Of a stretch of DNA of 64,000 nt, positions 3,001 through 44,554 are shown piece after piece. The notes below the pieces were generated by a model, which was not told the origin of the DNA, made no database searches, and saw nothing but the letters and a program-made list of their open reading frames with translations. The stretch lies in the NCBI GenBank assembly GCA_002205965.3, contig NADL03000018.1:558001-622000 (forward strand), in the 5' to 3' direction. How positions within the stretch are numbered: position 1 is the stretch's first letter; the number at the start of each line of letters is the position of its first letter. The DNA is from Kappaphycus alvarezii. Its lineage: Eukaryota > Rhodophyta > Florideophyceae > Gigartinales > Solieriaceae. The translations under genes were made by a program, and so were the position numbers.

Positions 3001-4787
3001 TTAGTTTTTATTGGATCTGAAAGAAAGTGAAGGGTTTTTGAAGTATGGTTCGGTATATGCCGGTGTCAAATGTTAGGAATTGGAACTCTCCACAAGCCCT
3101 GAGCTTCAATAGCTGCCATAGTCACTGGGTCCGCGGCAGCATGGCAAACGCTGCACTGTTGTGACAGCGCAGCATTTCGCACGGTTCTGCGGTCATGCTT
3201 GGATATTTCTAATATACCTTCTAGTGATAAATCAGATTGTAGCTTTTAGTTTAATTTTTTATGTTAGTTCTGTGCTACGGTTTACTATAGCGGACTAGTG
3301 TCAAAAGGATGTATTTGGTGGCGAAAATTATACCCAAAAGCTTGCGTACCGAGTAGCGGAGCAAGTCAAGGCACAAGAATAATTAGTCATTAGGCAGAAA
3401 AAAGAGGGATTTTTTGATTGCTTTCCTGCGAATATTTTAATGGTTGAGAGCTCTGCTAAAACGTTGCTACTGCTAGGTCTACAGTAAAATTATGGTTCTT
3501 GTGAGCTTTCCACCCGACTGAAAAGTGGCTGAGAGCCCGCTCAGCGAGCATGCGGCGTTGGAGGTGAACATTAAGCGGCATGTCGCTGAAACAGAATGGC
3601 CCCCACCTTGGAGTATTGGTCCATGGCTCGGCTGGCTACCGAACGTGCCACTTCCTTGATGGGGAAAAGGCTTCGGGTGCAAAAGTAAACACTTGTTCTT
3701 GCTGCAATAAGAGGAAGCCAACCAGTCGAGCACAACGGCCAGTAGTTGTGTCAGACATTCCAAACTCGCCTTTTAGGGCCTACAATAGAATACCACGAGC
3801 AATCTTGCTACGTGATACACATTTCATACCTTTCGGGTTGTAATGCTGCATCTATTTCTTCATTTAGAAGACTCAAACAGATACGGAAATATATGAAATG
3901 CTTGTTGCTCCTGCTTTTCGCTGTAATGCTTACACCTAGTAGTCTTTCATTAATGGAATCAGCTTTTGCTTACGCAACACGAAATTTTAATGTATTTGAG
4001 GATATCAGAAGTCCAAAACTTTGAAGAAAGAGGAATCCGTACAGCGTAAATCCCCAAATTTTGGAGACCAACGGGGATGCCCCTCATACTACTATATTTG
4101 CAGTACTTGCATCAATACAGTACAGTACAGTACTGTTGAGGATCTGCGGGGCTCCGGTATGGACATCATGCTCCGTAAGCAGATAAGATATGTAATGTGC
4201 GATTAGAGTAATCTTTGTTTAGAGTATAGTTGTAGTCTAATGTGAGTTGATCGGCAGGAAAGATAGACAGCACCAATATTATTTGGGCTCCAGTTGGATT
4301 TGCAATTCACCGTCACCCTTTTCCTTTTACAGACATAATTTCACTGTCCTCCAACTAGTCTCAAAGTGAATTTTCAATGAACTTCCCCTGGTCGCACATT
4401 TCCCAACCGATATGCATTGCGAGAATAAGTCTACATTTTCAGACTCACTGATACCGCGCAAATAATCTAAACTCACAGGGCACATTGTTCTGTGGCCAAA
4501 AAATGTTTTTACTTGTAGATTGATTTTATTTTGTTCTTCTTCTTTCTATTTTCTACGTCGAGTGCAACCCAACCCAAGATGTTACTTAATGGCCACCGAA
4601 GATTATAAGACAGCCTTTTCTTACTACAACAGAACCCATATCAGAAATGAGCTTACATTCACTCTCTTTTCTTTTGTGACTGGTACGAGACCGGAACAAC
4701 ATCGACATCCTTGTACACTCATTCCTGGACTTTAAAGTGAATCATTTGAGCTTGTATCTCCGAGCGTAGCATGTTGTTACCTTTGGG
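1..4787. other. AT-rich stretch without a recognisable gene
   Basis: No reading frame here resembles a family I know; the longest are under 100 codons and have no domain-like pattern. The DNA is moderately AT-rich and resembles the decayed transposon DNA that follows. The only ordered feature is a small CAGTA array near 4116. The left flank of the Copia fragment (4788 onward) would be the place for its 3' long terminal repeat, but I could not find a matching second copy. Confidence 0.5.
4116..4135. repeat. CAGTA/TACTG array (outlier in the left flank)
   Basis: Four overlapping CAGTA units ending in a palindromic GTACTG turn. This is the same motif that is frequent between 26 and 50 kb, here isolated in transposon-rich DNA. 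Confidence 0.8.
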
Positions 4788-6921
4788 TCAGGTTATTTTG
4801 TCTTCGATATTATCCTCTGATCGTATCCATGTCACGATTGTTATTTCGTTGTGTTTGTATGCACTTCTTATATCATCAATTTCATTCATCAGGCGTAGTT
4901 GTTTGAGGTGGTTACTTCCTGTAATTGTGTCAAACGCCAATTTCAAGTCTGTAAAGACATAAAGCGGAATCTGTACATGCATCTTCTTAAACAAAAGATT
5001 CAGCGAAACTCCATAGTAAAATACTTGTGAAAAGTCTATTGCCTCGCAAGCAATCATAGCCCGCGTGATTCGTGTGCACTTTGAAGAGCTTCAATGAAGA
5101 AAATGACACCTATTCTGTCATCGACGAGCAGAATTATGAAGCCGCGCTGACTTTTACTGTCAATGTTTGTTTTATATCCTACGTCAACGAAAACATATAG
5201 ATTCAGATTGTCTTTTCCCAAGATCGAATACTGGAGAGATGTTTTGAGGACTGCTTGAGATAGTGAACAGTCTCATTAAGTAAAGCAAAATTCTTTGGAC
5301 TTGTATCTTGATACGATACTTGGGACGGTTGGACTACAGCGTACGAAAAATCAGGTCGAGGGCTCTGTGCTATGAAAAGTAGCTGTCCAAAAATACTGCG
5401 AAACATCTCTGGGCTTTCTTTCTCACCTTAAAGCTCAATAAGCTTATCCACATGTGTGAGCTGATTATTGCCGATCTCGTCAACCCTTCCTTTAATGAAA
5501 AAGCCAAGAAGACGCAGATCCTGGTGTTGATCTTTACGCGTTTTGAACTTTGATGTAGCTTTCTCTTCTGCGCCTGCGTAGTAGTCCTTTCCTGTATTTA
5601 CGGAGTCACCTCTGGCTAGACCAGTAATTCCAACCAGCTGATTATTCTTAATGAGATAAAGAAAGCAATGATCGAAAGAAGCAATCTTCATTCTAAGATC
5701 TTCCGCAAAAACTTGATAATATGTGTCAAGTATCAAACCATCAAGAACCGTGCTCCGTTAAGCCTTGGTGTGGCAGCACAAATTCTGATACGTAATGAGA
5801 AGAGAGGTTCGGTATAGGAGGAGGTTCGGTATAAAGATCACGTTCTAATGGCTTCGATAAAAGTAAGCTTGCTCAACATCGCGCGTACAGAACTTGACTT
5901 GAAAGAAGATGACAGAATATGATAAACTAACTCGGACGTCATCCTCATAAGCATTGGAGAGTTGCTAGAAATTTTAAATTTCTCGGGATATTTGTCTCCT
6001 TGGAGAATCCAGCGAGCCTTGAATCGTTCGTATTGAGTACCGGGTTCTTTGATTTTCAGAACGAAACTGTTGCCGACAAAGTTCGTGTTCGACAGAAATG
6101 TAGCTCTTAAAACTGGTCAGACACCGCCCTTAGCCACGATTCTATCATATTCAGCTTGTCTTGAAGTCTTAAATCTAGAGTCTTTCGGGTTCTGAACAAT
6201 TTTCGTTAGATGAACAATGACAGATTCTGTTTGTCCTGGGGAGGCAAATTCAGATGCTTCATCGAAAAATACAAGTAGATGTTTTCCGTGCATATATGGA
6301 CGAGAGTACCTCTAGAGCATTGTGTTGTGAAACTGATGCTGCATATTGATTTGTTCAAGCAAAACATATAGCCTTCCTTCATGGTAAAGAAGTACATACG
6401 GACCGTCCCAGCCCTTGTTCTTTCTATACACCAATACTTCGTCCCAGGCGTTAAAAGTCCACTGGTCTCGTTCGGTGGGTAATTTGTAGGCCTTCCTGAA
6501 TGCGGAGCTTGGTAACAATTGCTTCGTACTCACGTTGGGCTAGTGTCATGAGCTCCATTCTGTTGACAACTGTCTGGGGAATCTGTTGATAATTGCCGAT
6601 CAGGAGACGAGGCTGTGCACCAAAAGCAAGTATAGCCGGAGTAAATCCTTCTGGACCAACGGTGTGTGACATGGCCATGTTGGCGTAATCAACAAGTAGG
6701 TCGAGCTGGGCATTGGGATACTCCGAACGAAGTTTCTGAGTTATACGGCGAAGCGAATCGTGGTCCCGTTCCGCAATAAGAGACCCACAAGCCTCGACAC
6801 TGATCGAGATGACTTTACACCCAATAATTTCAACATGATGCTTGAATTCTACTGAGAGAAACGCTTCTGCCTGGTCTACCAATAGGCTCGTTGGAACGCA
6901 CCACTCTACAATTAAAATCAT
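4788..6921 (-). pseudogene. Ty1/Copia retrotransposon pol remnant (integrase, reverse transcriptase, RNase H)
   Basis: Reading the minus strand, pieces of a Copia polyprotein appear in the usual order. About 6921-6450 is the second half of the integrase core (VEACGSLIAERDH, then GPEGFTPAILAFGAQPR), followed by the integrase C-terminal motif KGWDGPYVLL near 6400. About 6180-5430 is reverse transcriptase (KARWILQGDK; a degenerate VEQAYLQ region). 5406-5203 has GQLLFIAQSPRPDFSYAV, the end of the RT domain. 5057-4788 has an RNase H part (VFTDLKLAFDTITG, TWIRSEDNIEDKIT). The pieces lie in different frames with stops. The first integrase motif, protease and gag are missing on this side. The style resembles Copia elements of fungi and red algae. 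No long terminal repeats were found. The element is dead; the family call is firm. Confidence 0.85.
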
Positions 6922-13168: not shown

Positions 13169-14400
13169 TCATGCGAGTCCACGAACCAGGCACCATGCAA
13201 AGCAAGCCTTTTGAAGTAATCGAATTACTATTTCAACTAGGCAAGGCCCTGGTTCCCTAGAAACGTTGCCGCTGGTCCATGTGCGGTTTCGTACGCTTCC
13301 AAAAACTTTTTGCACCTCCTTCACCAGTTCCCACTCCACTTCCTTCTCAATGTTTTCAAGTTTTTCTCCAACGTCTGTACAGAGTCGATTCCAATCAGTG
13401 TACTGGAAATTCGCCCCTCTGAAAGTGCAAAATGTAGGGCCACAGTCGCTAGATCTACCCCTTTGCTCTTACAAACTTCATTTGCCCTCCTCGCCGCCGC
13501 TTTGGTTTCTCATCTGCCGGGTGCCACTCTGGCGGGCCCCCACTCGTCAGCATTCCCATGGACAAGGCACTGGCATTGATCACGCTAACCCCAAACCGTT
13601 TTGTCAGCCCGTCTAGCATCAACTTCAAGCGATCGTTCTGCAAGCAAAGGTTGCAGTACGATAACACCACGTCCACCTGTCCATCCTCCACGCATGATAA
13701 TATGTACGGAAACACCTCCACGGGATATCCGGTGATCCCAATCGCCTTCGTTTTCCCCTCTGTTTTCAATTCCACCAAGGTAGGGATGGTCTCCCGAGCT
13801 ATTTGGTCCAAATCCGCAGCAAATTCGATGTCGTGGCATTGGATTATATCAATGAAACTGACTCCTAACCGTTCCATTGATTCTTCCACAGAGCGTCTGA
13901 TCCGGCCCGCTGAGAAGTCAAACACATTTTTGTCATAACGACCTACCTTTGTGCTCAAAACATAGCTTTCTCGCGGAGCTGTCTGAGTGCCTTTCCCAGG
14001 ACCTTCTCTGCCAGAGTTCTTCCATAATATGGCGACACATCGAAAAAGTTGATACCGTGCTTAACTGCTTCCAAAACAGCACGCACTCCCTCTTCCTCCT
14101 GACCCGATGGACCAGTCCAGATTGTAAAACATCATCATGGAGATGCGGTTAGCAACACTATAATACCCAAATGCACTCTGCCTGTCCATCAAGAAAGTAA
14201 CATAAAGTGTGCAGTAGCCCACTACCCTCAGAAATCATCATGTCCTCCCTCTCATAACTCCTTAACTCTAAAACAAGTTCTCTGTGGTCTGGATTCCTAT
14301 GAACGTACCTTAACCTCTCCAAACTCCTTTCCAAGTGGTGAAGCACCAAAGCCGATTGGGAAACAAGTATTCCGGTGTTCCCAACTTCCGCCGTGACCAT
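13169..14400 (-). CDS. L-galactose dehydrogenase (aldo-keto reductase; ascorbate synthesis), frame broken
   Basis: Oxidises L-galactose to L-galactono-1,4-lactone with NAD, the penultimate step of the plant/algal Smirnoff-Wheeler ascorbate route, in the cytosol. The minus strand shows NTGILVS and IGFGASPLGKEFGEV at the N-terminus, then HGINFFDVSPYYGRTLAEKV, STKVGRYD, ESMERLG, DIIQCHDIEF, GITGYPVEVF, SYCNLCLQND, LSMGMLTSGGPPEWHPAD, and a C-terminal NRTWTSGN. The AKR tetrad D, Y, K, H is present (FDVSPYY, STKVG, QCHD). One intron of 210 bp (14099-14308) interrupts it. At least five frame changes occur, each explained by one missing base (for example CCCC read as CCC at VSP-IGFG), with no in-frame stop inside conserved blocks. 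Start and last codons are uncertain: an alternative frame runs upstream to 14606. Family call is firm; working gene versus young pseudogene is open. Confidence 0.85.
14099..14308 (-). other. spliceosomal intron in the L-galactose dehydrogenase gene
   Basis: On the minus strand the conserved FGEVK codons are followed by GTACGT at 14308, and the conserved EEEGVRAV codons start at 14098 directly after a CAG. Removing 14099-14308 (210 nt) joins the two conserved blocks in phase, as in plant and algal homologues; the interior does not encode anything resembling the protein. Confidence 0.75.
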
Positions 14401-25890: not shown

Positions 25891-26916
25891 TTACGACTCC
25901 TTGACAGCCTCTAAAAGAGTTGAAAAGTAGAAACGCGTGCCTGTAAACTCTGTCCTCTTAATGGTCATACCACAAGCTTGGAGGGCGTTGCGGACAGCTT
26001 TCTCATCATGAAGATAAGCGCGAGTAGCCTTGCTAGGACCCGGGAAAAACTCGCCGACCTTTTTCAACAAGGCGAGGAAAAAGGTGGAGGGTGCAAAACT
26101 GATGATGAGACGACGGGTGGAGCAGGCGGCAAGCTTTTGAATCATCTGTGCTGCCTTTTCGGTGGGGTAATGAATCATGACATCGATACAGCAGACGGTG
26201 TCATAGGCACCTGCAATAGATTCAAGATCCTGAGTTGCAAACGAGACGTTTGGCATTGCGTGTGGAATAGTAGCACGACCCCTACGTTCAGCCTCGTCAA
26301 CCATAGCCTGACTGATATCTGATGCCGAGACAATAGCACCACGCTGCAAAAGCGGAAGTGTGAGGGAGCCTACACCGCAACCGGCATCGCAAAAGGTGTT
26401 TCCTTTGGCGTCTGCGTCATCGTCTATCCATTTGAGGACTTTTTCGACGGTCTGGGCATGGCCCTGACGGATGTCGAGTTGGACATTGTTGACTTGACCA
26501 TCTTCGGAGTAGATGCGGTTCCAACGGTCAAAGCCGACGTTGTTGAAATATTCGGTGACCTCTGTCTTGTCGTCAGGTTTAGGTGATACGACCATGCGAG
26601 GGGTGTTGTAAGCGGGTGGGGCGCGGGGGAGGGGAGTGGATGGGATGGATGGGATGGATGGGAGGGCATAGTGATGGGGTGAGATTTGCGCTTGGTAAAA
26701 GCGGCGAGGGGGCGAGAAAGGCTTGCATGTTGGCAAGGAGTGGGGACGGGCGGGGCGGGCTGGGCGGGGCGGCGCAGTGACGGGAAGAGGTTGGCCGTGC
26801 AACACAAGTTGGTATCGGAAGGAGCGTTTGGCTGATCTCCCGACTCGTTTCAACAGTTTTGTACTGTACTGTACTGTACTGTACTGTACTGTACTTTTGT
26901 TTAAACATGACAGCAC
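25891..26916 (-). CDS. chlM: Mg-protoporphyrin IX O-methyltransferase, plastid
   Basis: Transfers a methyl group from S-adenosylmethionine to the C13 propionate of Mg-protoporphyrin IX, the step after Mg-chelatase in chlorophyll synthesis, at plastid membranes. The mature part starts about residue 115 with VTEYFNNVGFDRWNRIYS, the ChlM/BchM opening; CDAGCGVGSL (176-185) is the SAM-binding motif I, SASDISQAMVDEA follows as motif II, and IDVMIHYPTEKA and RLIISFAPST complete the fold; it ends EAVKES. This 230-residue part is in one intact frame. The first 110 residues are proline/serine/arginine-rich and would act as a transit peptide, but the ATG at 26916 precedes the GTAC array (encoding VQYSTVQYST), so the true start is doubtful; an ATG at 26728 in another frame gives MQAFLAPSPL, a red-algal-like transit start. 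The gene is divergent from CFAS. Confidence 0.93.
   Translation of the reverse strand: MLSCLNKSTVQYSTVQYSTKLLKRVGRSAKRSFRYQLVLHGQPLPVTAPPRPARPARPHSLPTCKPFSPPRRFYQAQISPHHYALPSIPSIPSTPLPRAPPAYNTPRMVVSPKPDDKTEVTEYFNNVGFDRWNRIYSEDGQVNNVQLDIRQGHAQTVEKVLKWIDDDADAKGNTFCDAGCGVGSLTLPLLQRGAIVSASDISQAMVDEAERRGRATIPHAMPNVSFATQDLESIAGAYDTVCCIDVMIHYPTEKAAQMIQKLAACSTRRLIISFAPSTFFLALLKKVGEFFPGPSKATRAYLHDEKAVRNALQACGMTIKRTEFTGTRFYFSTLLEAVKES
26640..26670. repeat. GGATGGGATGGAT-type short tandem repeat within the ChlM 5' part
   Basis: Three near-perfect 10-bp GATGGGATGG units. On the minus strand they encode alternating serine, isoleucine and proline in the transit region of ChlM. Confidence 0.7.
26861..26895. 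repeat. (GTACT)7 array at the ChlM 5' end
   Basis: Seven perfect GTACT pentamers. It lies inside the longest ChlM reading frame but probably upstream of the real start. Similar arrays recur between genes of this island. Confidence 0.9.
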
Positions 26917-27132
26917 GGTAACCGGTTGTCGACGATACTAGGAATTACAGTAACCTCTGTTTGTCCCTTTTGCGTCTGTTTGTGAGCGTAAGAAATAAAG
27001 GATCAAACATGCTAACAGTACGGTAGAAAAGCGGAGGTACATGACTCTCTGTCACCACCCGTTGGCTCATCCACTGGAACGGAATCAAAGCAACAGCCAA
27101 GGCACAGTGCAAAGCCGTTGATATCTCAACTG

Positions 27133-27670: not shown

Positions 27671-29016
27671 ATGCTTGCCGACGACCATCAACGCCCCGGT
27701 CTTCTGTCCGCCATCTCATCCAAACTCTCCACCTCTATGGAACACCTGTGTCGATTCCTGGTCCACGAATTCCTTTCCCGCGGCATATCCACCGGTACAC
27801 TGACCTTTGTACACCCCGACTCTACCGTCACCCTATTCGGCCAACCCGAATCCGAATCCAAAGCCTCGGCCATCCGCATGCCACAATTTACCTGAAAACC
27901 CAGCCAGTTTCTACACCCGTGTAGCCTCTACTGCTGACATTGGCTTTGGGGAGCCTTTGTCACCGGTGATTTCACCGTGGATCGAGTCGATGATCTGATT
28001 TGTATTTTCGCGTATTGATTCGGAATCGGGATGAGCAACGGTTGTCGACGTCTGCATTGCTTGTTTCAAAGTTGGGAATGTGGTTGAATGGACGGTTGCA
28101 TAGTTTGAATCGGAATAGTGTGCTGGGGTCGAGACGGAATATAGAGGCGCATTATGATTTATCGAATGAATTGTTTGGGACATTCTTGGAGAGACGTGGA
28201 CGTATTCGTGCGGTTATTTCGGGGACGGGGCCAGGACGTTGGATGAGGGACAGCACCGGAAGATTGATATGATTTTGGACAAGGCGAGGATCACGGCGGA
28301 GTGTGATGTGGTGGAGATGGGTGCGGGTGGGGGAGTTGGGGATTCGAGCGGCGCAGCGGTTTGGATGTCGAGTGACGGGTATTACGCTGTCCAAGGAGCA
28401 ATTGGTGTTGGCAAAGAAGAGGGCCGAGGCGGCTGGAGTGGGGAACTGGTCAAGTTTGAATTGGCGGATTATAGGGAATTTGCGGAAAGGGGGATGATGT
28501 TTGATCGGGTGGTGTCTGTGGAGTGATGGAGGCTCTTGGGCATGAGTTTTTGGGTACGTATTTTGGGGCGATTGAAAAAATGTTAAAGGAGGATGGATTG
28601 GTGGTACTGCAGGTGATTACTACGCCGGAACAGCGGTATGAAGAGTATCGGCGGGGTGTGGACTTTATACAAAAGCATATATTTCCTGGGGCATATGCCC
28701 GAGTTTTGAGGCTGTGGTTGGGGCGATGGGGAGAAATAGTCGGCTGGTGGTGGAGGATGTGGAGAATATTGGGGTGCACTATGCGACGACGTTGAGAGAG
28801 TGGAGGAAAAGGTTTGGGGAGAGTGTGAAGAGAGGAGATGTCGCGGCGGCTGGATTTGATGAGTATTTTGTGAGAAAGTGGATGTATTACTTGTGTTATT
28901 GTGAAGCTGGGTTTGCGACACGGACATTGGCAACATTGCAAATTGTGATGAGCAGAAGCAATAATACGGAAAGTTTGGGGGAGGCGGTAGTGTTGGGTGG
29001 GGGTGAAGTGGAATAA
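27671..29016 (+). CDS. cyclopropane-fatty-acyl-phospholipid synthase family methyltransferase, frame broken
   Basis: This family adds a methylene (or methyl) group from S-adenosylmethionine to the double bond of acyl chains in membrane phospholipids. Starting from ATG 27671 after CAACC, recognisable blocks in order are FYTRVASTADIGFGEAF and VTGDFTVDRVDDLI (27910-28010), HSLNRNSVLGSRRNIEAHYDLSNELF (28100-28185, given here as two joined blocks), TWTYSCGYF and DEGQHRKIDMILDKARI, the SAM motif VVEMGAG, ELGIRAAQRFGCRVTGITLS and KEQLVLAKKRAEAAG, DRVVSVE, GAIEKMLKEDGLVVLQVI, RRGVDFIQKHIFPGA, VVEDVENIGVHYA, and near the end AGFDEYFVRKWMYYLCYCE, typical of the CFAS C-terminus. Length fits the family (about 450 codons). 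Eight frame changes occur, all explicable by one or two missing bases, with no stop inside the conserved blocks. So this is probably a working gene in a deletion-prone sequence. The family is common in bacteria and patchy in algae. Confidence 0.85.
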
Positions 29017-31142: not shown

Positions 31143-31487
31143 AACATCTTCATAACTACCACCCACATCCGTCACTTTCGCCCGACCCACCGCCGTCCGC
31201 TCCTTCACCCCCCCCCTCCACCCTTACACAAACAAACACACACACACACCATACACCGCAACTCCCTTCCCGTTCCCCTTCCTCCCTCACCCCCCACCCA
31301 CACCACTTACCACTTAAACACCCTCCCTTCCCCCTCCACTCCTCCCATCACCTTCCCTACCCCCATCCCCCCCTCCACCCCTCCACCCCCCACCCCATAA
31401 CTCTCTCACATACAACACCCCCACATAAATTCTCCCCCACCCCCCTTCACCAACCCCGTCACCATTCTTCTCGCACCTCAACTCCAA

Positions 31488-34400
31488 ATGATCACCGACC
31501 CAACCCGTCGGCCTCCAAAGCCAAAACCAAACCAAAACCAAAGCCCAAAGCCCTCTACAAACTCGAAGGTAAAGTCTTCCTCCCCGACCGCGATGTCCCC
31601 TCAAGCACCTCATCCGCCGATCCTCCCTCCTCATGGGCCGTTCCGACCCCACCGCAACTCACTCCCATCCCTTCAAACCCGCAAAACAAGGCGTTCATAT
31701 CGGCCTCGGAATCTCCAACAAGCTCTCCCGTGCCCATGCACGCATCGATTATGACCCCTCCTCCAAACGCTTCTTCATTCATTGCTTGGGTAAGAATGGC
31801 GTCACTGTTACCAAGCCCGATGATCAGAGCACCGAGATTCGACTCACCCCGCAATCAAGGCCCTTGCCCTTGGTCTCGAAATCACTCATCAAGGTCGCAG
31901 ACTGTGTTCTCGTCTTTCAACTCCCTCGCGATTGGGAACACAAGACTCGTCCGCCACCAACCCCGCCACCACCACCTGCACCCAACACTCCAACAGAGAC
32001 TCTCCTGATTCTTCTCCGTCTACTTTGTCCCCAAACGTCAAGAAGAGGAAGAAGAGAACCTGGATCAAGTCCGAGTACAGTTCCCTCAGGGCCTTGATGA
32101 TGAGGTTGGGCTATGGACGCTGGGATGAGATTATCGCCACCGCCTCGGGTCGATTGGCAGAACGCGATCCCGAGGAATTGGTCCCCATTGCGAGGGAGTT
32201 TGTCGCTCACTGCTATGTCCATGCCAGACCGGGCGTCGAGCAAAAGGCACTCATGGAGATTCTTCGCGAGGAACCTACCGCAAAGGGAGTCCCAGAGGAG
32301 GACATGGTCACTGAGATTGAGGAGCTCGTCGAGTCGAGGAAGCGCATTTCCAATCCGGATGAAAAGCGAAAGTTTGTCCGCTGGGCCCGCAAGTTGAGGC
32401 TCCTGAGTCGTCTCAAGGATGTTCATGATCATCCCTCCCTCGACCGCTTGAGAAAGGGAGAGTTGAGGGTGTTTACGCCCCCCCGCGCATTGTACTGGAC
32501 TTCGGCTGATGACGCCGATTTAATTACTGGCTCGTTCAAGCATGGGTATGGCGCAATAGAGCAGATGAGGCTGGATGAGGAACTCGGCTTTCTTGGAAGG
32601 TATTCCAGACCGCTGCCCACGAAAAAGTCTTCAGGTACCCCCCGCAAGGAGGCAAAGGCCGCAGACACTATGCATGCTTCCGAGGAGGAGGATGAAGACG
32701 ATGAGGATGTCGATGAGGATGAGGATGAGAGGCAGGGTGCGTCTATGAATGATGATCCCGACGAGGAGAATGGCGGGGACGGTGCCCTGCCTCATCCGAG
32801 GAAGAGGATGAAACTTGGCAACCGTACCTGCAAGAGGGACGAGGGCAATGCTTCGGACAGCATGGGACGGGGAATGGCAGACGACTCTGACGTGTCCCCC
32901 AATCGCAGTCCCGATCGTCAAAAGTCGGAAAGGCTGTGAGGAGTCGGAAAAGAATAGCAGCGACGCCGATCGCATGGAGGACGTCGACGATGCAGCCGCC
33001 GCCCCCGACAAGGTGAAGAAGAAGCCCGTCCGCATGGTCCCCAAGCGCGGGCCCCGCATTGGCAATGAGGACGGCTTCAATGAACCGGAGGACGCAAAGG
33101 CGGCGCGAGAGAAGATGGCAGACAAGGATGGCCTGGTCCCGTTTCCGAGCAGCGAGTCATTGATGCGCAGGCTCAAGTCCATTATCAACTCTTGTGCCAA
33201 GGAGTATGATCGCGACCAGAGGGAGCTCAAGAAGAAGCAATTGGCCGCGTCCCGTGCCAAGCAGCGAAAGGACGACCTGGCACAGAGGAAGGCCGAGAAG
33301 GAGGCGGAGAGGACGCGCCAGCGGGAGGAGCGGCGCATTCAGAAATCGCAGCCGTTTTCAAAAAAGGAGGCCATTGAATTTGAAAAGGCGCTGTCCAACT
33401 TTGGTATCAACTACGAGGATGACGGGAGGACTGTGGACTGGGCCTGGTTTCATTCCAAGGTTGACGGCTTTGACGCAAAGTACGAGTCGACCCTGAACAC
33501 GGCATATCTTGAACTTCTAGGCGAGGCTCACAGGATCTCTGATTTGGCTGCGGCAAAGGAGGATGAGGACTATGAACGAGTGGAACGAATCAATGAAAGC
33601 AAAAAACCATCGCCAGTCTTTAGTACACTGACGTTGGAGCGGGCGGAGAGACTGATTGAACGACTACAATTCTTTAGGGTCCTTCGAGGAGAGGTGTTGG
33701 TGCACAAAAACATAGACTCCATACTAAGGGGCTACAAAAGGTCAAAGGACTTGCCGCCCTGGTGGAAGAGTTGTCACGACCGGTCCCTTTTGTGTGGTGT
33801 CGATCGGCATGGCATGAACGGTTTGGATGTAATGGGGAGGATCCCGAGCTGGAGTTTGCAAGCTCAATGAAAAGCTGGCAGCGCAAAAACGGAAACGACG
33901 TGAAATCCCAAAAACGTGCAGCAATGCCCAAGTCGTCCGTGGGGAGCAAGCGCGCATTCAGCTTGGTGAGGTACTTTGGAGTCGAGCAAACGATCCACAT
34001 TTCGAGCAGATTGCCCAAGATCCCGTGCCCTCCTCCCGGCCTCAGCACACTGCCGTGAAAGAGAGGCAGTGTTTTCGAGGCCAGTCCCCAAAGAACAAGA
34101 AGAGCCGTCAAAATGGAGGATGTCGAAGAGAAACCCAAGGTGGAACCGTTGCGTCGAGGCGTAGAGGATCGAAATAAGGTTAAGCGCAAGACCGAACCCC
34201 TGTTTCCGGCACCCTCTACTGGAAGGCCAAGGACGCTACGACCCACCATTGTGGAGATTCCTCAAGATGAGGATGGGCAGCTCATGCTGCCCACCGATCT
34301 TGGCGATGGCCTTTTTCTACTCAGCCTCGGGGAAGTGAGACCAGACTCGCCCGGGTTTTGTAAGAATGGAATCATGTACCCTGTTGGATTTCGGAGCGTG

Positions 34401-35015
34401 CGGCAAATTGGCTCACACGCGTTCCTATGTGAAATTTTCGAGAGTGATGATGGTAGGAACCCGAGTTTCGGGTGAGCGCTCTAGACGGGTTTGATCCGAA
34501 TGGGGAGTGCGGTGGACCATTGTGGACCGAAGCGAGAACAATCGCTCAAGGCCTCAACATTGTGACTCTCTGGCTGCGAGTGGTGAATGAGATTAACAAG
34601 GAGGGTCAATCGGAGGGAAGGATCGCGCTCGCCTCAGGACCAGAACGCTTCGGGCTGTATGAGCCCACGATTGTGTACCACATTCAAAAGTTACCTGGGG
34701 CGCGTTCCGTGAAGGACTTTGAGCTTCGGGACTTTAGCCGTCAGGGGAGGGCCGCAAGATTGAACCTACGGTTGGCATCCTTAGTGGGATGTTGAAGGGT
34801 ATCGAAAGCAAACTAGAAGATCCTGGAGCGTCCACAACTTTGAGTTGGTTGTGACTGGGCAAGTGGAAGGCCCTCGACATCGGCTCATGTTGGCCGTAGA
34901 TGAGGAGATGAGTATACCCGAAGATTGGCTTGAAAAGTATGGAGGCAGTAAGAAGAAACATCGTCGAAAGTCAAACTCTTATTGGGGTAACAAGCGAAGT
35001 GATTTTCCTTTTTGA
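31488..35015 (+). CDS. FHA / CHD6-9-like SANT-SLIDE region / FYRN-FYRC protein without an ATPase, frame broken
   Basis: About 1,170 codons. Order seen: a lysine/proline start; an FHA (phosphothreonine-binding) domain about 31560-31920 with HLIRRSSLLMGRSDP, NKLSRAHARIDY and NGVTVT; a SANT-like part (RTWIKSEYSSL...YGRWDEI, 32050-32150); WTSADDADLITGSFKHGYG (32490); an acidic D/E stretch (32670-32780); a basic coiled coil (33200-33350); FSKKEAIEFEKALSNFGI (33355); LPPWWKSCHDRSLLCGV (33750) and EDPELEF. This follows the order found behind the motor in CHD6-9. Then FYRN (NGIMYPVGFRSVRQIG, 34360) and FYRC (RFGLYEPTIVYHIQKLPGAR, 34650), closest to TBRG1. No Snf2 helicase motifs occur and none lies upstream. 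Ten frame changes all fit missing bases. Between the CHD-like and FYR parts the reading stays basic and codon-like, so one gene is favoured, but two adjacent genes remain possible. Likely nuclear, chromatin-associated. Confidence 0.8.
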
Positions 35016-37839
35016 AACTGTACAGCACTGTGGATTGAGTGGGTCATTGATATTCGCGAGAGGGAGGTGACAAGTTGCCCAGTGCTTGAATCTACAAAAG
35101 TCGTCTAATTGGAGCGCGCTGGAGGTCAAACCTCGAGAGCATCTTTTCCGAGCTGGCAGGGTCAACACTGGCAGAAATGGCCACATTTTATCACACAATA
35201 CATGTACTTGCTTTGCTCAGTGAATCACTGACTGGCGGTTGAAAGCGCCACCCGCTCAAGCGTTGAATACGGTATGTAGTCGTTTCCAAAGAGTAAAAGC
35301 AGTAACAAACGACAAGGGCATATTGACAAGCAAAGGTTGTATGGCAGACCGAATTGCACATGTCTAGTGTAGAGAACATGAAAGTGAGTACATTGCTCAC
35401 GCACCAACAGGCTTTAGGCCAAAATGTTTTGGTAGCAAGCGCCGACGTGGTGGTGGGTGCAGTGTTTCGAAACTGGCGCAAAGCGGGGACTATTGCGTGT
35501 TATTTTCTACCGGCAATACCTGTTACTGTAGATGCAGGAGATGTGTTGCCCACTCCATGATGTTGCGTGGGGTGACCGCTCTGTCGTTACAGTAGGAAGG
35601 GCATTATGTTTCCCGTAAACTAAACTTGTTCCCCTTGTTTAAAACGTTAGGTGATCGAGGCTAGGCAGGCTACCATCTAACTCGATGCAAATTGGGGTGA
35701 ATTTTCGGGTCATTAAAGAAAAGGCTTTGGGAAGTGGAAAAAAATGAGGGGCAAGTGCAAAATAATGGCGACTAAGCTAATCCAATAAACTGCTCCGGTT
35801 GCATCACGGAAACGTGGAGAGTCAAACTGCAAGGAAAGCTTTCGTGGCGTGCTCGAGAAGGATATGGAACCAAAATTACTTGATCGTTGAGTTGAGTGTG
35901 GCACACAACGTAGGCCAAAGGTATTGTACATAGTAGGGAAATTGAACGTTTTGTTTACAAGCCACTGCAACGTGAACATTTGGTGTGGCAAATTCACGAG
36001 CGGTCTATGTCTTAGTCACACATGCCAATCTCGGCTAATGATGAGAGAGATTTCATGGCGACTAGACCTTGGGTCTATCCGTGTGTGTTTGACTCAAGAG
36101 TCAAGACTCGCGTAGGTAGCGTCACCGGGGGCTGTGGACGATTGGACAGTGAAGCTTGAGTATCATACGATGGGCTGGCGTGGCAAGGCGCCGATCCCTG
36201 GATCTCTACGAGATTACTGTAACGTTCTGCGGTACCCTCCTGTTGAGCAAAACAGAGGCGTCGACGGAGAAACCATCCAGTGCAAGATCATTACACGTGT
36301 TCACGTGTGCAGTGTACACGTGTAGTGATTGTTGTGAACGCTCGAGTGGCACCGTACTGTAGAGTACAGGAGGATACGGAATAGGAGTAAAGTTGACTGT
36401 ACAGCGTACTGTACAGCACAGCTCATTGAGTCATTCGTACGTAACTTGACGTCAATATAAAAACGTGAGGTATTCTCAATGGAGATTATTGTGCAGTAGT
36501 GTACAGTACAGTAGCGTAGATTTGTCGCACTTTTGTATTGTAGCCACTCTACGCACCGCCAACAACGGGTCCTGGTCATAACGAGTAAAGACTGGAGAGT
36601 CCTGTCGAAAGCTGCTTTTGCCCTTTTGAAACAGACAAACTGAACCACACCACACGCCGCTGCGGTTTATTTGTCCACTTTGGGTCGTCCGTTGGACCAA
36701 ATGAGGATTACACGACAATCAACTTTTGCCACCAAGCGTCCGTATTCTCTGTGTAACTCGGGCTTTTCACATCACAAGTGCAACATGGCCAGGTGGTCCA
36801 TCGTTAGTCTTGCATTCCACGCACGCTCGCTAGAGCGCAGCTGCTATATGTGAGAACGAAACAACGACCATACCACACTCTAATGTTTTGCACATGTACA
36901 GTACACTCTTGTAATCTGCCGCCAGGGTATTCGCAACGATAACGCTCAGTTTTCAACGAAGAGACTTTTCCCCCTGACATATCCGGAGGTTCGAGATACA
37001 GAGTATCGGGAAAAAAAGGTGGAATCAAGAAGTCAGCGAGCGATTGTGAGCGGCAGCGGAAGCCGACAACATACTGATTTTATTACAGCAAGGATTCTCC
37101 ACTCATCGTTGGCTTGATGTTTTCAAAACGTCCCGATTGGATGTTTGAAAACCTACAATCTACTCATCCCGTGAGATCACAGCGCGAAGCTGTTCTATTC
37201 CGAAACATCACAACTGTGGCACCCCATTAAACCTCCCTCCCACTCTCATCCTCCGATTGCATTACAGTTCATGGACTGTTTGCCCGCAGCATCAACGAGT
37301 ACTGTAAGTACCATCTCTTTCTCACTACTGTAGGGAGGTAAACCAGATTACCAGCAATGTCTACACAACGAGATTGCACAGCCTCTGTCGAATCAAGCAA
37401 TAACCCCTCACACCCCGCAAAGAGTATCCGCACTGCAATTTGTACTACAATATTTTGTGTGCGCTGCAGCGCAAAGGTTATTCAAAGGTTTTTGCGCGAC
37501 GGTTTTCAGTAACACCGCCAGTTGCCTCGACGATCCTCGGCACTGCTGGTCTTTCATGTAGTACCGCACAGAGAGACCGAGAGACGGTGACACACGAAAA
37601 CATTCTGCACCCGCATTGTGAGTTCCCTCTGACCTTTTCCTCGCCATCATGGAACATTCACCCTGGTGTTGGCTCTGTGCGTCAAAAATATCTCCAGATG
37701 TGGTCGTCGTTGTCATATTGCGATTTCCAGGAGGTTCCCTTGAAGAGGCATTCTGTAGCGATCAGCAGTAATTGAGTGCAATTTTGAGAATGTTGATTGC
37801 TCTGACTTGCGGAACTTTGAGTCTTATCTTATTTCTCTT
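35016..37839. other. intergenic region, no recognised gene
   Basis: Frames are short and overlap on both strands without family character. GTAC palindromes occur at 36351-36417 and 36495-36512. 36320-36520 is a dense cluster of such motifs. Confidence 0.45.
36396..36417. repeat. GTACAG/CTGTAC palindrome
   Basis: CTGTACAGCGTACTGTACAG, a near-perfect inverted pair, with related copies 15-45 bp upstream and at 36495. Confidence 0.8.
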
Positions 37840-43655: not shown

Positions 43656-44554
43656 TCATTCCACAAGTGTTGGGAACAGAATACTTGTCCCCATCCATAT
43701 CCTTGTCGCCGCACCACCATTCTCCTTGGCACCATTCTCCCCAGACTGCGACCCGACAACCGCCGGCCGCGTGTTTGCCGCAGCCACACTCCCATTGTCC
43801 GCCCCACTGCCTTCCTCACCCGCAGCCACTGGCGGCTTGGTCACTGGGTTTAGTCTCTTTGCCTCTCGCATCAGCCGCATAAAATACTTCTGCGAATGCG
43901 TGCGAACCTGAGTCATGTTGCGCGTCCCACAAAGGCCGCAATGGAGCGCAGATCCTTGTGACCGTACTTTTGCAGCGCCTCCAAAAACAACTTGTGCTCG
44001 TCAGGGGTCCAATACCGCGACTGGCCCGGGATCTTGGCCTTTTGAGCACGCTCCTTCTTCGACTTTGACTTTTTCGTCACGCCCATTGGAGGCGGCCAGG
44101 TTGTTGGACGACTTGCGGTGAGAGGCCTTCTTCAAGGATTTGCATCTGGACCACGGGCGGCACTCTTGCTTGCGGAAATGTCGCTGCAATGGGACATAAT
44201 CTCCTTGTCGTGACCCCTGCGGTTGTCCGAGTCGCACGGGGGTGCAGCGGTGGTTCCTGATCACGAGACTGCGGGGGGTGCTGCTCGGAAGTGGACGGCT
44301 TGATGCAAGTGGTGTTGTCGTGGAGGGTGCAAAAGAGGGCGGACGAGAGATGGTGGGTTGAGCCGGTTGGAGATGGGTGGGACGGGGAGAGAGTTGTTGG
44401 CGGAGGTAGGCGATTTCCTCGCGAGCGGCAGTGAGTTCGGCCTCGAGTTGGGAACGAAGTTGAACTTGGGCGTCGAAACGAGTGAGTAGGGAGTTGTACT
44501 GGGAGATGGGGATGTGGTTAGCGGGAATTGGGGCGGCATGTTTGGGTGGGACAT
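43656..44554 (-). CDS. MYB/SANT transcription factor of the SHAQKYF class with N-terminal coiled coil, frame broken
   Basis: A single MYB-like repeat reads RYWTPDEHKLFLEALQKYG and KDLRSIAAFVG (about 44030-43930 on the minus strand), followed after a one-base gap by TRNMTQVRTHSQKYF (43927-43882), the third-helix signature of one-repeat, CCA1-like/SHAQKYF plant and protist factors (here THSQKYF). It is preceded by a lysine-rich nuclear-localisation-like stretch (KKSKSKKERAQKAK). Further upstream, near 44500-44390, HIPISQYNSLLTRFD and LRSQLEAELTAAREEIAYL form a coiled coil that may serve dimerisation. The C-terminal 60 residues are glycine/alanine/asparagine-rich. At least three frame changes occur; the one inside the MYB repeat restores the consensus if GGGG replaced GGG. 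The start is set at ATG 44554 (MSHP...), preceded by an in-frame alternative at 44605. DNA-binding role is from family knowledge. Confidence 0.8.

What the first reader, a model, noticed from the sequence alone, without database searches (positions are those of the whole stretch)
31488..35015. ATPase-free chromatin protein joining FHA, CHD6-9 C-terminal region and TBRG1-like FYRN/FYRC
Seen: an FHA core (LLMGRSDP, NKLSRAHARI), then blocks in the order found behind the motor of CHD6-9 remodelers (FKHGYG, FSKKEAIEFEKAL...FGI, LPPWW...HDRSLLCGV, EDPELEF), then FYRN and FYRC most like TBRG1. No Snf2 motor or chromodomain is visible, and the DNA before the start is low-complexity leader. I know of no protein with this architecture. 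If real, it could target or regulate a remodeler or histone-modifying complex by phosphothreonine reading, with the DNA-binding SANT/SLIDE-like part freed from the motor. One gene or two neighbours is not settled.
Basis: partly seen in the sequence, partly recalled or inferred. Interest (0 to 1): 0.8.

Follow-up and report, generated by a model that had tools for sequence, protein, structure and literature searches.

The report
Motor-free FHA-CHD-FYR chromatin protein
An algal gene joins three chromatin-protein parts that were not found described together in the papers searched here, including the DNA-gripping end of a remodelling machine but not its motor, and the same genome holds a second gene that shares two of the three parts.

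Summary
Unmodified window pieces match five Pfam models above cut-off, in order: FHA, HTH_CHD1_Hrp3, HTH_CHD6-9, FYRN, FYRC. The 336 Mb genome holds a second copy of the locus, 96% identical around the gene. In the coding segments, 37 of 43 substitutions lie at third codon positions. So it is most likely one conserved gene, and the broken frames look like assembly error. No SNF2 match was found on its contig, and an in-frame stop precedes the ATG. A second gene pair carries FHA + HTH_CHD6-9 with no FYRN or nearby SNF2 match. CHD1 is present; no CHD6-9 ATPase was found, though the search was not exhaustive. Most likely a phosphothreonine-reading, DNA-gripping subunit or scaffold. Function is inferred; no eukaryotic proteome collection was available.

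The parts
31488..34795 (+). single gene, FHA - CHD6-9-type C-terminal region - FYRN - FYRC; no intron needed; frame broken by small indels
   Evidence: Frame counted over the alignment of two copies: 0 stops in the 12 indel-free pieces from 31488 to 34546 in either copy, against 82 and 112 stops in the other two frames counted over 31488-35012; upstream in-frame stop 31398 and FYRC-frame stop 34793.
31547..31935 (+). FHA domain with GR, S-x-x-H and N-G positions of the phosphothreonine site (meaning recalled)
   Evidence: PF00498 4.1e-5, best stretch 31708-31839; second copy 1.4e-4. Edges beyond the HMM stretch are by eye.
32055..32240 (+). SANT-like block (RTWIKSEYSSLRALMMRLGYGRWDEII...)
   Evidence: By eye and recall only. 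The second HTH_CHD1_Hrp3 stretch reported was not located; structure prediction failed (pLDDT 41).
32493..32591 (+). SANT-type HTH (FKHGYG block)
   Evidence: PF23588 6.6e-8, genome-wide 3.8e-4; weak PDB hits to the CHD1 DNA-binding domain, 2xb0 and 3ted E 0.014, 4b4c 0.066.
32680..33020 (+). acidic, low-complexity linker
   Evidence: Translation.
33295..33573 (+). HTH_CHD6-9 tri-helical domain
   Evidence: PF23078 9.7e-8; genome-wide 1.9e-6.
33748..33860 (+). DLPPWW...HDRSLLCGV...EDPELEF block after HTH_CHD6-9
   Evidence: Translation; aligns with DFPEWW...HDKALMRGTGIHGVGQW...NDPRI of the second gene. Likeness to CHD7 is recalled.
34287..34403 (+). FYRN
   Evidence: PF05964 1.1e-7, genome-wide 1.7e-5; TBRG1 2wzo E 0.0013 from the second copy.
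34565..34726 (+). FYRC
   Evidence: PF05965 3.1e-8, profile 23-81 of 84.
34796..35012 (+). possible C-terminal tail in another frame
   Evidence: Coding-like translation in both copies, reached only if an indel shared by both copies is assumed; no Pfam match for 34830-35012. Not established.

Best explanation
One gene of a photosynthetic eukaryote, probably a red alga, encodes a motor-free chromatin protein of about 1100 residues. Shown: an N-terminal FHA domain, a SANT-type HTH and an HTH_CHD6-9 domain like those that follow the motor in CHD remodelers, and C-terminal FYRN/FYRC, in one conserved frame. Inferred: the SANT/HTH modules grip linker DNA or the nucleosome, the FYR module holds a partner or histone-modifying complex, and the FHA domain docks the protein on a threonine-phosphorylated partner. 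It would thus act as a phospho-regulated scaffold or accessory subunit, working in trans with an ATPase supplied by another gene such as CHD1 or ISWI. A second gene in the genome, FHA + HTH_CHD6-9 without a FYRN match, suggests a small motor-free family rather than an accident.
For: Pfam matches over cut-off for all five domains. One stop-free frame across all domains in both copies. Purifying selection: 37 of 43 substitutions in the eight coding segments examined fall at codon position 3 (binomial p 1.3e-12 against one third). Second gene pair: HTH_CHD6-9 3.5e-11 and 8.3e-11, FHA 9.4e-9 in each copy; on direct scan FHA 2.2e-10 and 5.6e-10, HTH_CHD6-9 7.8e-13 and 4.1e-12. None of the 72 listed SNF2 matches lies on C18, C780 or C609; on C598 the nearest is about 1.3 Mb away. 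FHA positions GR, SxxH and N-G present in this gene (the second gene has N-S at the last). The plant precedent of an FHA protein as an ISWI subunit is known here only by the title of Gu et al. 2020, doi 10.1111/jipb.12945, in the reference list of PMC10048520.
Against: No transcript, experiment or partner is known. FHA is the weakest domain (genome-wide E 0.0124). The raw sequence of both copies has broken frames, so the single frame rests on counting a base present in either copy as real. Both structure predictions failed (pLDDT 41 and 44), so the folds are supported by sequence profiles only. No motor partner is identified.
Confidence: 0.55

Rival explanations
1. Split remodeler: the protein is the C-terminal half of an ancestral CHD6-9 enzyme that became a separate gene, and a motor half from another locus completes it in trans.
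For: Order of blocks as after the CHD6-9 motor (order recalled); the four HTH_CHD6-9 places found in this genome have no SNF2 match nearby.
Against: The CHD motor that was identified is CHD1, which keeps its own HTH_CHD1_Hrp3 (3.6e-17) and CHD1-like_C (5e-11). No CHD6-9-type motor was found, but not all 72 SNF2 matches were classified and the chromodomain search was swamped (150 of 1312 candidates scored). Two different genes carry FHA in the motor's place.
Confidence: 0.2
2. Motor-independent transcription regulator: a DNA-binding factor combining FHA and a TBRG1-like FYR module, never associated with a remodeler.
For: FYRN matches TBRG1, which as far as I recall is not a remodeler subunit; no motor partner identified.
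Against: The two HTH models matched are named for CHD remodelers.
Confidence: 0.2
3. Two neighbouring genes: an FHA-CHD-like protein ending at a TGA near 34056 and a separate TBRG1-like FYR protein.
For: In the raw sequence of both copies the frame that holds EDPELEF runs into that TGA.
Against: Between two indels just before that TGA the copies read different peptides in that frame. With indels counted, the pieces from 33834 to 34546 are stop-free in both copies. EDPELEF and FYRN are only about 430 bases apart in the same orientation. The linker itself holds too few substitutions (1) to test codon phase.
Confidence: 0.08
4. Decayed pseudogene.
For: 15 indel columns between the copies within 31488-35012; the window lacks a base in 12, the other copy in 3.
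Against: Third-position bias of substitutions. The frames of CMAS next door, the MLL-like L001 and CHD1 are broken too, pointing to the assembly.
Confidence: 0.04

Closest known systems
CHD6-9 (subfamily III CHD remodelers), region C-terminal to the motor
   Same: HTH_CHD6-9 over cut-off, a SANT-type HTH before it; WW...HD...DPEL block after it (recalled).
   Different: No SNF2 motor or chromodomain; FHA in front and FYRN/FYRC behind.
TBRG1 (NIAM)
   Same: FYRN matches 2wzo at E 0.0013, FYRC follows.
   Different: TBRG1 has no FHA or CHD-type HTH (recalled).
Arabidopsis FHA2, reported as an ISWI subunit (title only)
   Same: FHA-bearing protein tied to a remodeler.
   Different: No CHD C-terminal region or FYR known to me; homology of the FHA domains not tested.
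CHD1
   Same: HTH_CHD1_Hrp3 matches over cut-off; the nearest PDB chains are CHD1 DNA-binding domains, weakly (E 0.014 and up).
   Different: CHD1 is a separate gene here, with SNF2, helicase C, HTH_CHD1_Hrp3 and CHD1-like_C in L024 and Chromo plus SNF2 in L023.
MLL/Trithorax
   Same: FYRN; an MLL-like gene with FYRN 1.9e-15 is L001 in this genome (PHD and SET read by eye).
   Different: No SET or PHD match here.

Membership tests
CHD6-9 remodelers | SNF2 ATPase motor | tested here: not met
   0 of 72 SNF2-rel_dom matches on C18 or C780; in-frame stop upstream of the ATG.
CHD6-9 remodelers | tandem chromodomains | tested here: not met
   No Chromo match in the 8 pieces at E up to 10. The capped genome-wide list (150) has none on C18 and one on C780 about 210 kb away.
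CHD6-9 remodelers | HTH_CHD6-9 domain | tested here: met
   PF23078 9.7e-8, above cut-off.
CHD6-9 remodelers | BRK domain (recalled as present in members) | tested here: not met
   No BRK match in the 8 pieces scanned at E up to 10.
FHA-domain proteins | FHA domain over cut-off with the phosphothreonine-site residues | tested here: met
   PF00498 over cut-off; GR, SxxH, N-G seen (positions recalled).
FHA-domain proteins | phosphothreonine binding | not testable with these tools
   Needs a binding assay.
TBRG1 | FYRN followed by FYRC | tested here: met
   PF05964 and PF05965 over cut-off.
TBRG1 | no FHA or CHD-type HTH in the same protein (recalled) | tested here: not met
   FHA and CHD-type HTH lie in the same open frame.
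MLL/Trithorax | SET domain | tested here: not met
   No SET match in any of the 8 pieces.

The most novel reading that the evidence does not exclude
This lineage has no CHD6-9 ATPase and instead keeps the CHD6-9 grip module in a family of motor-free, phosphothreonine-steered proteins (at least two genes: FHA-CHDC-FYR and FHA-CHDC). The module would then be separable from the motor, either as an early stand-alone form later captured by CHD6-9 or as a fission product acting in trans on CHD1 or ISWI.
Probability: 0.35. Interest if true: 0.7.

Novelty: new variant of a known kind. Interest (0 to 1): 0.52.

Why it matters
It separates the DNA-gripping part of a remodeler class, mutated in human disease in its CHD7 and CHD8 members (recalled), from the motor and couples it to a phosphothreonine reader and a FYR module. 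A natural motor-free version gives a direct way to ask what that region does alone, and the two genes bear on how CHD6-9 remodelers arose.

Tried and rejected
Structure prediction: the first CHD-like segment folded alone gave pLDDT 41; the HTH_CHD6-9 segment with two relatives gave pLDDT 44. Both were too poor to compare, so no fold search was run. Relatives in IMG/VR and GTDB contigs: 6 and 44 pattern matches, none confirmed. PDB search of the FHA frame and of FYRC: nothing up to E 1. NCBIfam on 5 pieces: nothing on the three pieces of this gene, and one match far below cut-off on the second gene's FHA piece. Plasmids, Rfam and tRNA scans: nothing. The genome's chromodomain search is uninformative for CHD motors, because its 150 scored matches look like retroelement copies (inference). 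Motor typing: a chromodomain pattern was run on 20 SNF2 loci only and hit L020, L023, L024, L030 and L033; by eye only L023 and L024 look like chromodomains, and Pfam confirmed Chromo in L023. An ATP-site pattern on 19 more short stretches showed something in 4 of 19, none of them CHD-like by eye. Some of the 72 matches were not fetched at all, so a CHD6-9 motor could have been missed. A third HTH_CHD1_Hrp3 pair (C145, C497) looks like ADA2 (C497 only, by eye). Further paper searches on FHA2 and ISWI, CHD7 in red algae, TBRG1 and FYR, and CHD6 in algae gave nothing on this architecture (listings; passages of PMC10538959).

Full report
What is there. Eight unmodified window pieces were scanned with Pfam and five hit a domain above its cut-off, in the order FHA, HTH_CHD1_Hrp3, HTH_CHD6-9, FYRN, FYRC. 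The E-values are 4.1e-5, 6.6e-8, 9.7e-8, 1.1e-7 and 3.1e-8. Over the whole 336 Mb genome HTH_CHD6-9 (1.9e-6), FYRN (1.7e-5) and HTH_CHD1_Hrp3 (3.8e-4) stay significant, while FHA falls to 0.0124, still over its bit cut-off. The FHA call is helped by its position and by the second gene described below. FYRN finds TBRG1 (2wzo, E 0.0013) as its only PDB hit. The 683-aa CHD-like frame finds only weak PDB hits, led by CHD1 DNA-binding domains (E 0.014 and up). Two segments that I compare with CHD6-9, a SANT-like block at 32055-32240 and the WW...HD...EDPELEF block, rest on recall and on the second gene, not on a profile.

One gene. The window is G000:C18:558001-622000. A second copy lies on C780 in opposite orientation (L004), 96.1% identical over 6569 columns around the gene. 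Further pieces of C780 match the window at about 86-95%: L013 to 23.7-28.6 kb, L004 to 28.6-38.4 kb, L012 to 53.6-62.9 kb and about half of L011 to 1.3-6.4 kb, with one piece of L011 inverted and the rest of L011 unmatched (only matches over 300 columns were printed). It may be the other haplotype or a divergent duplicate; I did not decide. Between 31488 and 35012 the alignment has 15 indel columns; the window lacks a base in 12 and the other copy in 3. Counting reading frame over alignment columns from the ATG, and translating each indel-free piece from its own copy, gives no stop in either copy in the 12 pieces from 31488 to 34546. The 10 stops of this frame (both copies together) lie in the pieces that start at 34547 and 34831. 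The other two frames have 82 and 112 stops over the same stretch. The FYRC frame first stops at 34793, after the FYRC match ends; the second copy stops at the same place. What follows 34793 looks coding in both copies but needs a shift shared by both, and I leave it open.

Probably not a pseudogene. The alignment of 31301-35200 holds 69 substitutions. In the eight coding segments examined there are 43: 3 at codon position 1, 3 at position 2, 37 at position 3 (p 1.3e-12 against one third). One of the 37 lies in the uncertain tail, one linker segment has none, and the frame of each segment was set by me from the translations. In the 5' flank (31301-31480) the 12 substitutions show no such bias (5, 5, 2), and 3 lie in the 3' flank. 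The neighbouring CMAS gene is split over three frames, and the MLL-like L001 and the CHD1 gene L024 are broken too. The frameshifts therefore look like assembly error.

No motor. An in-frame stop lies at 31398, before the ATG at 31488. None of 72 SNF2 matches is on C18 or C780.

A second gene of related plan. The HTH_CHD6-9 model matches four places: this gene, its copy, and a pair at C609 and C598 (6 candidates scored). That pair has an FHA domain about 0.6 kb upstream (9.4e-9 in each; 2.2e-10 and 5.6e-10 on direct scan), HTH_CHD6-9 at 7.8e-13 and 4.1e-12, and, in C598, a DFPEWW...HD...NDPRI block that aligns with DLPPWW...HD...EDPEL (the C609 copy shows it in another frame). It has no FYRN match, no SNF2 match on C609, and none within about 1.3 Mb on C598. 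Its frames are broken too. FHA joined to HTH_CHD6-9 is therefore a recurrent plan here.

The motors that are present. L024 (C447) is a CHD1: SNF2 1.9e-52, helicase C 4.5e-12, HTH_CHD1_Hrp3 3.6e-17, CHD1-like_C 5e-11; L023 (C821) gives Chromo 4.2e-12 and SNF2 3.6e-55. HTH_CHD1_Hrp3 marks a further CHD1-like place at C585, about 1.7 kb from an SNF2 match. ISWI, INO80 and Snf2 types were read from recalled motifs. No CHD6-9 motor was found, but the SNF2 matches were only partly typed and the chromodomain search was swamped, so its absence is likely, not proven.

Organism. The species was not determined.

How it may work. Shown: domains, order, conservation, no motor found. Inferred: the FHA domain binds a phosphothreonine partner (GR, SxxH, N-G present), the SANT/HTH region binds DNA or the nucleosome, and FYR holds another complex. 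I prefer a phospho-regulated accessory subunit or scaffold acting with an ATPase in trans. The nearest precedent is an FHA protein reported as a plant ISWI subunit, known here only by its title in a reference list. Rivals are a fission half of a CHD6-9 enzyme, and a motor-independent regulator.

Novelty. Papers holding at least three of FYRN, FYRC, FHA domain and red alga: 1, which does not hold the term FHA domain. Of FYRC, FHA domain and CHD7, 5 papers hold two, none of them the pair FYRC and FHA domain. These are listings; those papers were not opened. No eukaryotic proteome collection was available, so wider occurrence is unknown.

Noticed in passing
L009 (C609:519500-529499) and L010 (C598:102500-112499): Second motor-free gene, FHA + HTH_CHD6-9 + WW...HD block, in two similar copies.
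   Followed up: yes
window 4490-6415: About 1.9 kb is inverted relative to the matching stretch of C780 (L011), and about half of L011 has no match in the window over 300 columns.
   Followed up: no
window 28170-29013 (+): CMAS-type (cyclopropane fatty acid synthase family) gene split over three frames, showing similar frame noise.
   Followed up: partly
window 25894-26937 (-): Magnesium-protoporphyrin IX methyltransferase, PF07109 3.5e-36.
   Followed up: no
window 13458-14060 (-): Aldo/keto reductase, 6e-26.
   Followed up: no
window 43659-44000 (-): TQVRTHSQKYF, like the SHAQKYF motif of one-repeat MYB proteins (recalled); no Pfam match at E up to 0.01.
   Followed up: no
L001 (G000:C7:666200-669367): MLL/Trithorax-like gene with FYRN (1.9e-15), apparent PHD and SET by eye, frame-broken.
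   Followed up: partly
L053, L054 (C74, C669): Allophycocyanin-family protein with an N-terminal extension, on contigs one of which is over 1.78 Mb, perhaps a nuclear gene with a transit peptide.
   Followed up: partly
G000:C541, C534, C546: Several strong FHA matches in long open frames on a few contigs, perhaps bacterial sequence in the assembly.
   Followed up: no
G000:C497:290000-296000 (L056): ADA2-like frame of 587 aa (by eye), the source of a weak HTH_CHD1_Hrp3 match.
   Followed up: partly
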